A stretch of DNA of 64,000 nt from Dysidea avara (taxonomy: Eukaryota > Porifera > Demospongiae > Dictyoceratida > Dysideidae). The DNA lies in contig NC_089285.1 in the NCBI RefSeq assembly GCF_963678975.1, forward strand, positions 10,278,694-10,342,693, in the 5' to 3' direction. Below the pieces are notes generated by a model that saw nothing but the letters and a program-made list of their open reading frames with translations, was not told the origin of the DNA and searched no databases. Both the position numbers and the translations under genes were made by a program. Below, piece by piece: positions 14,505-17,199 of this stretch (its first letter is position 1; each line of letters opens with the position of its first letter).

Positions 14505-14760
14505 TTCTTATCAGTGATTACATTCATTTACCATGAAGTATCTGTGCTGACTTAGGACATCTGAGTAAGGTCTTTTCTTGGGGTTGCCAGATAGCTACTA
14601 ACTACCGTATACGCGGTTTTTTTCTAGGGAAGAAATTTTCACGAATGCCATGATTTGGAGGTTTTCGCGATTTTATTTCCATGAATACTGCTTTTGAATC
14701 ACATGATTAAACTTTACTAATCACGTGAGTTTACGCGGTAACCACTGCACGCTGAGTTGA

Positions 14761-15022
14761 ATGGATATTAAGCAGTACTTCAAGTCTAGAGATTCAAACT
14801 TTGAAGACACCTTGCCGAAGAAGGTGCCAAAGGCTAGCATACGAGCGGTAGAGAAGGAGCTTAAGGAACGGGCCGAGGCAGTAGCGAACATATGAAGTGG
14901 TGGCTATGTCAAGATTACAGACGAAGAGAGAGCAACGATTGGTGGGTATGCCGTTATGAATGGAGTTACTGCTGCTTTGCGCCATTTCAAGCAAATGAAA
15001 GAATATTCCAAATGGGTGGAAT
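14761..15022 (+). pseudogene. Tigger-like transposase, N-terminal part
   Basis: An ATG at 14761 opens a lysine-rich N-terminus ('MDIKQYFKSRDSNFEDTLPK'). An in-frame TGA at 14893-14895 interrupts it. The frame goes on through 'GGYVKITDEERATIGGYAVM', which resembles the start of the DNA-binding region of sponge and cnidarian pogo-like transposases (inference from memory of the family). It then stops just after 'KWVEF', where the catalytic half begins in another frame. The second helix-turn-helix part and the first catalytic aspartate region are therefore missing, indicating an internal deletion. Confidence 0.6.
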
Positions 15023-15498
15023 TTGACCTTCACTCCAAACCATTGGTCTAACGAACAAGCGATGATGACCTATTTACACGCCATTCTTATTCCATATGTT
15101 GAGAAGACTCGGGCAAATCTGCAATTGAGCAAAAATCACCCAGCACTTGTAATCTTTGATCAGTTCAAAGCTCAAACTACTGAAAACTTTCTTAATGCTT
15201 TGGAACAGCATCACATATCATTTGTAGAAGTACCACTGATCGGTTGCAACCTTTAGATTTAAGCATTAATAAACCGGTCAAGGATCATCTGAAGGGCAGC
15301 TTTCAGGATTGGTACGCTGCTGGGGTACGCAGGAAAATACTAACCGGAGATGGCGACAGAAATGTGATTGATTTGCGTCTTTCTTTGCTGAAGCCATTAG
15401 GACTTCAATGTGCCTGCACTTACATTCAGACTACTGATTTTGTAAGAAATGGATTTCATGCAGCAGGCATAACTGAAGCTATATCAGATCTAGCGTAA
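15023..15498 (+). pseudogene. Tigger/pogo DDE transposase, catalytic C-terminal half
   Basis: Two overlapping frames give one recognisable DDE_1 domain. Frame 1 (15023-15256) has 'FTPNHWSNEQAMMTYL', 'PYVEK' and 'ALVIFDQFKAQTTENFLNAL', the family block holding the second catalytic aspartate. Frame 2 picks up at 'TDRLQPLDLSINKPVKDHL' (about 15.24-15.29 kb), which holds the third acidic site, and ends 'GFHAAGITEAISDLA' at 15498. A small deletion between 'VEVP' and 'TDRLQPLD' causes the frame change. In an intact protein this cuts and rejoins DNA at the element's ends. It cannot do so here. Confidence 0.85.
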
Positions 15499-15600
15499 AG
15501 ATACAGTTAATTGGCTTTTATAAACATGAACAATGCTGTGATGTAATGTTGATTTACCAACTTATATTGAAATTAGTTAAATGTACACAATAATTAACTT

Positions 15601-16986
15601 TTATGGTATATCATGTTTGGTATTGCTATGAAAATGGACAAATGTTTTTTGAGTAGAAGCAGTTAAGTAGGTGCTGACGCATAAGATCTTGATTATACCT
15701 CTTCTGTGAAGGATCTTCTTGAAATGCAATAGATGTTGCAAAAGCAATAGAAAGAGACCACAGTCAGTGCCTCCACATGGTTTCTGCACATTAGCAAATT
15801 TGATATTGCACGGACTACAACAAAACTGTCTTTGCAGCATCTTGTATGAACTTTTGTCCCACCCTGTATATAAGGAGTCATACACATGCACTAACTTGCC
15901 CTTGCTTGTTGTTGCAGCACATACCCAATGATTTCCATTGATATGTAAAATCTGTATGCGATTAGCTGTTTGCTCCTTGTGGTCTTGGTTTTGAAGCAAA
16001 GTCAATCTTAGCCCATTTATTTTAGGAAAAGCTTCCTTCAGCAATCGCTGTGCAACATTGTTGTGCTTATCGGTTAGCATCTGACCTGATGCTAGAATTA
16101 TTTTGTCCCCATTAGTCAATGAAATATCCTTAACCTTCACCCACATGTTACTGTCTTCAGATACTGCAATACTGTTATCAAATAATAACGGCTTTGGTGC
16201 TGCATACGAGTGCTCAGTGTTGATGTAGCGGAGAACATTAATTTGATCCTTGGAAGCTCCCACTGTAGCAGTCGACATCTTATTTGCAGGACCAAGAACT
16301 AGAGTAGAAACTTGACTGGAGAGTGTAGCAGAATGTTGACTGGAGAGTGTAGCAGAAGGTTGACCGGAGAGTGTAGCAGAATGTTGACTGGAGAGTGTAA
16401 CAGAATGTTGACTGGAGAGTGTAGCAGAATGTTGACTGGAGAGTGTAACAGAAGGTTGACTGGAGAGTGTAGCAGAAGGTTGACTGGAGAGTGTAGCAGA
16501 AGGTTGACTGGAGAGTGTAGCAGAAGGTTGACTGGAGAGTATAGCAGAAGCTTGACTGGGGACTGTTACAGTAATAGTGAAGCTGTTATTCTCATCACGA
16601 CACTGCTCCAAGTTACCATTAAAATGTGCTCCCTCTTCTTTCAAACGATACTTTGCCTTTTCAGCTAGATGTTTATAACTGACAAAAGTGTAAATACATG
16701 GCAATTCCAAACCTCCCTGTGGAAGATCACTCGAAAATCTCCTGCCACCTGTGATAGTGCAGGTAATGGACCCACCATGTAGTAGAAAAGTGGAAAACAT
16801 GCATGAAAACTCGCGTGTAACGTGCCCCACAACTACATCCCCAGCCTTCTTGGTGGCGACAGCGAATGGATCAGCATGATTTCGAGGCTCTCTTGCACAA
16901 TTTAGAACTTCTCCTATGGTTGAGCTTCAGATCGCTTGATAAATGTGATAACCTCTCACACAGCTCTGTATCTCAAACTTAAACAT
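15601..16986 (-). pseudogene. Ulp1-type cysteine protease with N-terminal conserved domain and octapeptide repeats (decayed)
   Basis: The likely start is ATG at 16984-16986 ('MFKFEIQSC'). TGA at 16927-16929 interrupts what should be a tryptophan codon, and the frame continues through 'TIGEVLNCAREPRNHADPFA' into the ORF whose first methionine is at 16830. Numbering from there: 1-60 hold 'GHVTREFS', 'ITGGRRFSSDLPQGGLELPC', a block I recall as common in cnidarian and fish proteins and possibly HIRAN-related. 90-172 are octapeptide repeats of the type TLSSQPSA. 240-365 are a C48/Ulp1-like fold with H301 (NGNHWV), D318 (VYDSL), Q349 and C357 (GGTDCGLF). The usual last motif ('YNQDLMRQHLLNC') lies in another frame at about 15.63-15.70 kb, ending with a stop at 15626, so a frameshift follows the active cysteine. 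Ulp1 enzymes cut SUMO-like proteins from targets; whether this one did is unknown. Confidence 0.8.
16311..16558 (-). repeat. 24-bp coding minisatellite
   Basis: About ten tandem copies of a 24-bp unit ('gttgactggagagtgtagca' plus four bases), in frame with the protease ORF and encoding 8-residue S/T/Q-rich units. Variant units (aaca/agca, gttg/cttg) are interspersed, suggesting slippage or unequal exchange. Confidence 0.9.
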
Positions 16987-17199
16987 AGTGTAGTGCGAGG
17001 TGTCGTGAATCGCCAACCATGTGCTACCGGTATGGGTTCGTGCAGCGGTACACACTGCATAGCCGCCCACATGTATTCTATTTCCTTCGTGAAATTTTCA
17101 CAATTATAAATTTTCACGATTATAAATTATCACGAATGCCATCCTATTCACGAAATTCGTGAAAATTTCATCCCTCGAAACCGCATATACGGTAAAAAG

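What the first reader, a model, noticed from the sequence alone, without database searches (positions are those of the whole stretch)
14605..17192. Tigger/pogo-type transposon carrying a Ulp1-type protease gene
Exact TA-flanked ends enclose a DDE transposase relic on + and, convergent on -, a gene with a conserved N-terminal domain and a C48/Ulp1 catalytic set (H301, D318, Q349, C357). Ulp1-like passengers are established in Mutator-like and some other DNA transposons; I know of no clear report in pogo/Tigger elements. If recurrent, it implies that a SUMO-type protease is part of this transposon's life cycle.
Basis: partly seen in the sequence, partly recalled or inferred. Interest (0 to 1): 0.72.

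Follow-up and report, generated by a model that had tools for sequence, protein, structure and literature searches.

The report
Two-gene transposon with SUMO-protease-like gene
The window holds a dead copy of a "jumping gene" that carries, besides its cutting enzyme, a second gene for a SUMO-protease-like protein with a DNA-binding-type domain; many other copies in the same genome carry both genes in open frames, so the protease looks like a lasting part of how this transposon spreads.

Summary
The window element (14603-17194) is a degraded copy: it lacks about 660 bp of transposase, and its second gene has a stop, a frameshift and Pro where the catalytic Gln is expected. But the architecture recurs. 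In the host genome, 102 of 122 listed transposase hits have a hit of this protease gene within 3 kb, 101 of them convergent. In an every-second-row sample of ranked protease hits, 16 of 20 loci have the same layout. Eighteen of 26 elements could be bounded by TACCGTA-type ends and enclose both genes, at 17 independent sites. Twenty-seven copies have both frames open. Transposase and protease trees of 11 families share 7 of 8 splits; none of 10,000 shuffles did as well. So this is a lineage of two-gene pogo-type transposons whose HIRAN–C48 gene has co-diverged with the transposase. Ulp1 genes in other transposon types are known; my searches of an open-access library showed no HIRAN, and no Ulp1, in pogo elements. 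SUMO specificity and the role in transposition are inferred.

The parts
14603..17194 (.). whole element, TA to TA, 2592 bp (relic; sibling L009 is 3441 bp, L011 3600 bp)
14603..14659 (+). left terminal inverted repeat (TACCGTATACGCGG...)
17142..17194 (-). right terminal inverted repeat
14761..15006 (+). transposase relic, N-terminal part (residues 1-82 of the sibling protein)
   Evidence: tblastn, 91% aa identity
15002..15492 (+). transposase relic, DDE_1 part, joined to the N-terminal part across an internal deletion: the 3 siblings hold about 650-664 bp more here; frameshift near 15235
16684..16986 (-). HIRAN domain of the second gene (start codon at 16986; in-frame stop at 16927-16929)
16312..16566 (-). 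24-bp tandem repeat (10.6 copies, 8 codons each) linking HIRAN and C48; its length varies between copies
15632..16269 (-). C48/Ulp1-type protease domain; frameshift near 15751-15757; Cys-6 position is Pro

Best explanation
The window holds a dead, internally deleted copy of a two-gene cut-and-paste transposon of the pogo superfamily. Gene 1 (plus strand) is the DDD transposase. Gene 2, tail-to-tail with it, encodes a protein with an N-terminal HIRAN domain (a fold known from HLTF as a DNA binder) and a C-terminal Ulp1-type cysteine isopeptidase domain. SHOWN: the two genes share one pair of TIRs at many independent sites, occur together in open frames in many copies, both show restrained amino-acid change between families, and have co-diverged. 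INFERRED: gene 2 serves the element. Most likely HIRAN brings the protease to element DNA or to the broken ends left by excision, and the protease removes SUMO (or a related modifier) from proteins there, either to undo SUMO-dependent silencing or to help the transposase and repair machinery work on the ends.
For: Recurrence: protease and transposase hit lists of the same genome were cross-matched. 95 of 122 transposase hits have a partner within 3 kb, 94 convergent, median gap 158 bp. A further query adds 6, all convergent, and one more adds contig C91 (read by eye): 102 of 122, 101 convergent; the exception, L011, has an inverted C48 segment. Chance expectation is about 0.0016 per protease hit. 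Sample: 16 of 20 protease loci (every second row, rows 8-50 by my count; rows 42 and 46 skipped because already held) carry HIRAN + C48 on one strand and the transposase convergent. TIRs: 18 of 26 elements examined were bounded and enclose both genes; in 16 of these 18 the TIR beats every shuffle (5 per element), window and L013 do not. Between elements, 600-bp flanks match only for L012/L013, so 17 sites. Open frames: 27 pairs, including 6 copies each of two families. Domains at E <= 0.01: HIRAN 8 of 8 members of A3 (three rows with stops had been dropped), C48 12 of 16 of A1, DDE_1 7 of 10 of A2 (fragments among the misses). The A1 profile finds 13 PDB sequences at E <= 1, all named SENP or Ulp-type protease, best 0.0015. 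Between families pS is 0.76-0.87 and pN 0.27-0.48. Co-divergence: 7 of 8 splits shared among 11 family representatives, 0 of 10,000 shuffles as high; 14 of 20 among 23 copies, shuffled maximum 2.
Against: No expression, enzyme or mobility data. HIRAN matches to PDB are weak by sequence (HLTF, E 0.27-0.39), and the two HLTF tyrosines that stack on the bound dinucleotide (Y72, Y93; PMC4666394, passage) align with non-conserved positions here, so DNA-end binding is not assured although the N..D pair and VGHVPR core are kept. 20 of 122 transposase hits have no listed partner; L017 was seen to lack it. In one subfamily (L021, L022, L028) HIRAN and C48 lie in different frames in 3 of 3 copies viewed. 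In L039, one of the 27 open pairs, the transposase from its first ATG is only 356 aa, so 'open' is not always 'complete'. The protease tree has only 2 of 8 strongly supported branches. A related protease domain also occurs in another element type without detected HIRAN (L026, L027, L031).
Confidence: 0.6

Rival explanations
1. Gene 2 is an anti-silencing factor only: it binds element DNA and strips SUMO from silencing proteins, with no part in the transposition reaction, like the plant VANC/KIU proteins in effect.
For: VANC genes that contain a Ulp1 domain (KIU) of Arabidopsis Vandal elements are linked to hypomethylation and escape from silencing (PMC13317346, passages; [quoted passage not shown] A separate second gene fits a trans-acting factor.
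Against: Nothing here separates anti-silencing from a role at DNA ends; HIRAN is known from a repair protein (PMC4666394, abstract listing and passage).
Confidence: 0.3
2. Selfish or inert passenger: a host-derived protease was captured once and is carried along without helping the element.
For: The window copy and its siblings are broken in gene 2 as well as gene 1; capture of Ulp1 by MULEs is known (PMC13317346, passages).
Against: pS near saturation with lower pN between families, 27 pairs with both frames open and matching gene trees are not expected of an inert passenger.
Confidence: 0.07
3. Gene 2 is a processing peptidase that cuts the transposase or another element protein, like adenain-type proteases.
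For: C48 and adenain belong to one protease clan (recalled).
Against: No polyprotein was seen in the element; the profile's 13 PDB hits are SENP/Ulp-type, none adenain.
Confidence: 0.08
4. The two genes are unrelated neighbours: a pogo element inserted beside or inside a repeated protease gene, or the reverse.
For: The protease type is very common in this genome (1024 first-look candidates), and a relative sits in another element type.
Against: Fixed convergent order with a median gap of 158 bp, 94 of 95 pairs; one TIR pair around both genes in 18 bounded elements at 17 unrelated sites.
Confidence: 0.01

Closest known systems
pogo superfamily, Tigger family (PMC7386202; section 8 and passages read)
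   Same: DDE_1 transposase, DDxD spacing 35 (Tigger given as 29-36), TA ends, 3.0-3.6 kb for undeleted bounded copies, within the 1.2-5.2 kb range
   Different: That paper gives one or two ORFs 'encoding transposases'; its main text holds no 'protease', 'peptidase' or 'HIRAN' (supplements not seen). Here a second, convergent gene encodes HIRAN-C48
KIU / Kaonashi Ulp1-carrying MULEs of plants (PMC13317346, passages)
   Same: DNA transposon with a separate gene bearing a Ulp1 domain, strongly conserved, proposed to benefit the element
   Different: Mutator-like elements of plants; the Ulp1 domain sits in a VANC gene; no HIRAN mentioned in the passages seen
Ginger1 transposons (PMC2836005, passages)
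   Same: Animal cut-and-paste elements with a Ulp1 (or OTU) domain, one with PHD
   Different: Ulp1 is a C-terminal domain of the integrase-like transposase itself, not a separate HIRAN fusion gene
CryptonF/CryptonS of oomycetes (PMC3212892, passages)
   Same: C48 peptidase encoded in addition to the recombinase
   Different: Tyrosine recombinase elements; no HIRAN mentioned in the passages seen
HLTF HIRAN domain (PMC4666394, passage; PDB 2mzn, 4xzf, 4s0n)
   Same: HIRAN core with N..D pair and VGH
   Different: HLTF is a SWI/SNF-RING protein; here HIRAN is fused to a protease; HLTF Y72 and Y93 not conserved

Membership tests
pogo superfamily | DDE_1-type transposase above the Pfam cut-off | tested here: met
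   Sibling L010 48.5 bits; L033 48.7, L037 53.8, L021 48.7, L039 54.9 vs cut-off 22; the window pieces alone are below (17.8 and 11.6)
pogo superfamily | TA target duplication / TA at both ends | tested here: met
   TA printed at both ends in 15 of 18 bounded elements; L012, L013 and the left end of L037 were set a few bases off (L037 left end TACCGTACCG at 2882). No empty site was examined, so duplication itself is inferred
pogo superfamily | N-terminal HTH_Tnp_Tc5 or CENP-B_N DNA-binding domain | tested here: inconclusive
   HTH_Tnp_Tc5 in 1 of 10 members, 21.8 bits vs cut-off 22.2; CENP-B_N in none at E <= 0.01
Tigger family | DD29-36D spacing | tested here: met
   35 residues between D362 and D398 of the L033 transposase, one protein measured; the same number also fits the Passer, Fot, Lemi and pogoR ranges
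Tigger family | TIR of 40 bp or less | tested here: inconclusive
   Aligned stretches mostly 38-57 bp, 70 in L011; some run past the TA
Tigger family | Position in the Tigger clade of a transposase tree | not tested
   No reference pogo transposases were at hand
Ulp1/C48 peptidase | C48 domain above the Pfam cut-off | tested here: met
   L009 25.4, L033 27.4, L039 25.5, L032 21.8 vs 20.7; below it: L037 18.0, L012 14.1, window 14.0
Ulp1/C48 peptidase | His-Asp-Cys triad and Gln at Cys-6 | tested here: met
   Met in the family alignment; not met in the window copy, which has Pro at Cys-6
Ulp1/C48 peptidase | Cleaves SUMO (or related) isopeptide bonds | not testable with these tools
   Needs enzyme assay
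HIRAN domain | HIRAN above the Pfam cut-off | tested here: met
   L009 31.1, L033 31.6, L037 30.0, L032 25.9 vs 24.7; 8 of 8 members of A3 at E <= 0.01; below it: L039 21.3, window 19.4
HIRAN domain | Binding of DNA with HLTF's residues | tested here: inconclusive
   N and D of the N..D pair invariant in A3; Y72/Y93 equivalents not conserved
Ulp1-carrying MULE (KIU) | Mutator-type transposase (recalled as the defining gene) | tested here: not met
   Transposase is DDE_1
Ginger1 | Integrase-type transposase with the Ulp1 domain in the same protein | tested here: not met
   Separate convergent gene; DDE_1 transposase

The most novel reading that the evidence does not exclude
A whole lineage of pogo transposons became obligate two-gene elements: a HIRAN-guided de-SUMOylating enzyme, encoded by the transposon itself, acts at the transposon's own DNA ends and is needed for efficient transposition or escape from silencing, making SUMO removal at DNA breaks a built-in step of a cut-and-paste cycle.
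Probability: 0.35. Interest if true: 0.78.

Novelty: new variant of a known kind. Interest (0 to 1): 0.62.

Why it matters
Ulp1-type genes turn up in unrelated DNA transposons (MULE, Ginger, Crypton), but what they do there is unknown. Here the protease has stayed with one transposase lineage through deep divergence, as a separate gene fused to a repair-type DNA-binding domain, and young copies with both frames open exist. That makes 'do transposons need to remove SUMO, and where?' a question that can be tested by deleting one gene, and HIRAN gives a hint of where the enzyme is sent. It also warns that annotating pogo/Tigger elements by transposase alone can miss a second gene.

Tried and rejected
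Rejected: chance neighbourhood; protease nested with its own TIRs (one TIR pair per bounded element); L018 as a deeply diverged family (a decayed relative of L012/L013/L017); L012 and L013 as two insertions (shared flanks). Led nowhere: relatives in viral contigs with A1, A2, A3 (none confirmed) and in bacterial/archaeal genomes with A2 (none confirmed; with A1 no search was possible); phmmer of single proteins against PDB (no SENP, Ulp or HIRAN hit at E <= 1). In one search the C48 rows that involve L034 come from a slice out of frame and were discarded. No eukaryotic genome other than the window's own was searched.

Literature searches behind 'none found': (open-access PMC library; Repbase and most subscription papers are not covered). 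Hits of these searches were seen as listings, except: passages of PMC2836005, PMC3212892, PMC7325037, PMC9219625, PMC4666394 and PMC13317346; section 8 and passages of PMC7386202.

Full report
OBSERVATION. The element at 14603-17194 has TA at both outer ends and matching inverted arms. A plus-strand DDE_1 transposase relic (14761-15492) and a convergent minus-strand gene lie between the arms. The minus-strand gene starts at 16986 and has three parts: a HIRAN domain, a linker of 24-bp tandem repeats (10.6 copies) and a C48/Ulp1-type domain. The window copy is dead. Its siblings hold about 650-664 bp more inside the transposase; the second gene has a stop at 16927-16929 and a frameshift near 15751-15757. 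By alignment with SENP1 the functional Gln should be at Cys-6: 14 of the other 15 rows of A1 have it, one row ends before it, and the window copy has Pro. In a strict ungapped 25-bp test the window's own TIR is no better than the best shuffle (17 of 25 each); its reality rests and on the siblings.

SIBLINGS. A DNA search of the host genome (G000, 550.8 Mb, 108 contigs, not named) finds three copies of about 95% identity: L009 with both TIRs, L011 with both TIRs and an inverted C48 segment, and L010, whose right end and HIRAN part are missing beyond a long repeat array. In L009 HIRAN and C48 are above Pfam's cut-offs (31.1 and 25.4 bits), and in L010 DDE_1 is (48.5). Flanks of window, L009 and L011 are unrelated. 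The repeat linker has 10, 16, 55 and 25 units in window, L009, L010 and L011 by a fuzzy count.

RECURRENCE. I listed the genome's hits to the C48 domain (150 places), to the transposase (122) and to a whole HIRAN-C48 protein of a diverged family (96 places used). Of the 122 transposase hits 95 have a protease hit within 3 kb; 94 are convergent, median gap 158 bp. A query with another family adds 6 and one more adds C91: 102 of 122, 101 convergent. The lists are capped, so 19 of the remaining 20 are unresolved; the twentieth, L017, is a decayed copy in which I saw no HIRAN or C48. From the protease side, I took every second row of the ranked list from row 8 to row 50 (two rows already held were skipped): 16 of 20 loci have HIRAN, C48 and convergent transposase; 4 (L026, L027, L031, L036) do not. 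In one search, 124 of 246 protease places (two overlapping lists together) have a listed transposase within 3 kb; the others were not examined apart from those in the sample.

BOUNDARIES. Of 26 elements examined, I bounded 18 by TACCGTA-type ends, three of them only to within a few bases; all 18 enclose both genes or their relics. In 16 of the 18 the TIR beats five shuffles of its own flanks; window and L013 do not. L019 and L025 also beat them but were not put in the bounded list; L010, L016, L017, L018, L029 and L039 do not. Between elements, 600-bp flanks match only for L012/L013, leaving 17 sites; within L028 and within L037 the left and right flanks share a short repeat. The 17 undeleted bounded elements are 3014-3600 bp long.

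OPEN COPIES. In 27 pairs both frames are open (transposase 468-557 aa, HIRAN-C48 367-458 aa, stop-to-stop, no stop inside the match). Among fetched loci, L033 (481/354 aa), L034 (478/428) and L037 (521/373) have both genes intact from ATG. L039, one of the 27, has HIRAN-C48 of 381 aa from ATG but transposase of only 356 aa from its first ATG. Some families are young: L033/L035 and L032/L034 differ by about 1% in the second gene. In the L021 subfamily HIRAN and C48 are in different frames in three of three copies viewed, by a shared frameshift or an intron.

CONSTRAINT AND CO-DIVERGENCE. Between families pS is near saturation (0.76-0.87) while pN is 0.39-0.48 for HIRAN-C48 and 0.27-0.41 for the transposase (36-47% and 42-59% amino-acid identity). 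Within the window family the ratios scatter from about 0.3 to 1.9 on few changes, as expected for dead copies. Trees of 11 family representatives share 7 of 8 splits, with 0 of 10,000 shuffles as high; but only 2 of 8 protease and 5 of 8 transposase branches are strongly supported. With 23 copies 14 of 20 splits are shared, shuffled maximum 2 in 1000 draws. The congruence is broad, not exact.

WHAT THE SECOND GENE IS. At E <= 0.01 HIRAN matches 8 of 8 members of A3 (three rows with stops had been left out) and C48 12 of 16 members of A1. The A1 profile finds 13 PDB sequences at E <= 1, all named SENP or Ulp-type, five of them below 0.01. The HIRAN profile finds HLTF HIRAN as five of six weak hits (E 0.27-0.39). 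The N..D pair and most of the VGHVPR core are invariant in A3, but HLTF's stacking tyrosines Y72 and Y93 (PMC4666394, passage) are not conserved.

MECHANISM. Shown: a two-gene transposon with co-inherited genes. Inferred: the protease removes SUMO or a related modifier, guided by HIRAN to element DNA or to excision breaks, either against silencing or for end processing. Plant VANC genes with a Ulp1 domain (KIU) are linked to escape from silencing (PMC13317346, passages), which makes the anti-silencing version the main rival. The Ginger authors suggested that Ulp1/OTU domains may activate repair factors (PMC2836005, passages).

KNOWN OR NEW. Ulp1 genes in transposons are known from MULE, Ginger1 and Crypton elements. 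The listings of nine searches of an open-access library showed me none in pogo/Tigger and no HIRAN in a eukaryotic transposon; most of those hits were not opened. Of two pogo surveys, neither main text holds 'protease' or 'peptidase'; 'Ulp' is absent from PMC7325037 and 'HIRAN' from PMC7386202; PMC9219625 holds no 'protease' or 'Ulp'. Repbase was not searchable. Hence 'new variant of a known kind'. Porifera Tigger elements up to 3872 bp are on record (PMC9219625, passage) and may include such two-gene elements unnoticed; this is a guess.

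Noticed in passing
L026 2350-5415, L027 3707-5467, L031 4992-7559: A different element or gene family carries a related protease domain without detected HIRAN: P-element-type HTH (Tnp_P_element, just above cut-off) in L026 and L031, a PHD-like finger (below cut-off) after the protease in L026 and L027; the protease domains are nearly identical.
   Followed up: partly
L036 4770-9069: Protease hit with three long minus-strand ORFs that match no Pfam family at E <= 0.01.
   Followed up: no
L011 3778-4233: In this sibling copy the C-terminal part of the protease gene is inverted in place within the element.
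   Followed up: no
window 16312-16566; L010 4431-5758: The coding minisatellite in the second gene ranges from 10 to 55 units between four copies of one family, with a 24-bp period that keeps the frame.
   Followed up: partly
genome places matching query 2508-2588: Many short matches to the right end only, mostly at 78-83% identity, look like small non-autonomous relatives that share the TIR.
   Followed up: no
L012 and L013 (contig C15, about 36 kb apart): Flanks on both sides are 96-97% identical, so these two copies arose by duplication of the host segment and not by transposition.
   Followed up: yes
window 17092-17135: A 16-bp tandem repeat (2.8 copies) lies just inside the right TIR.
   Followed up: no
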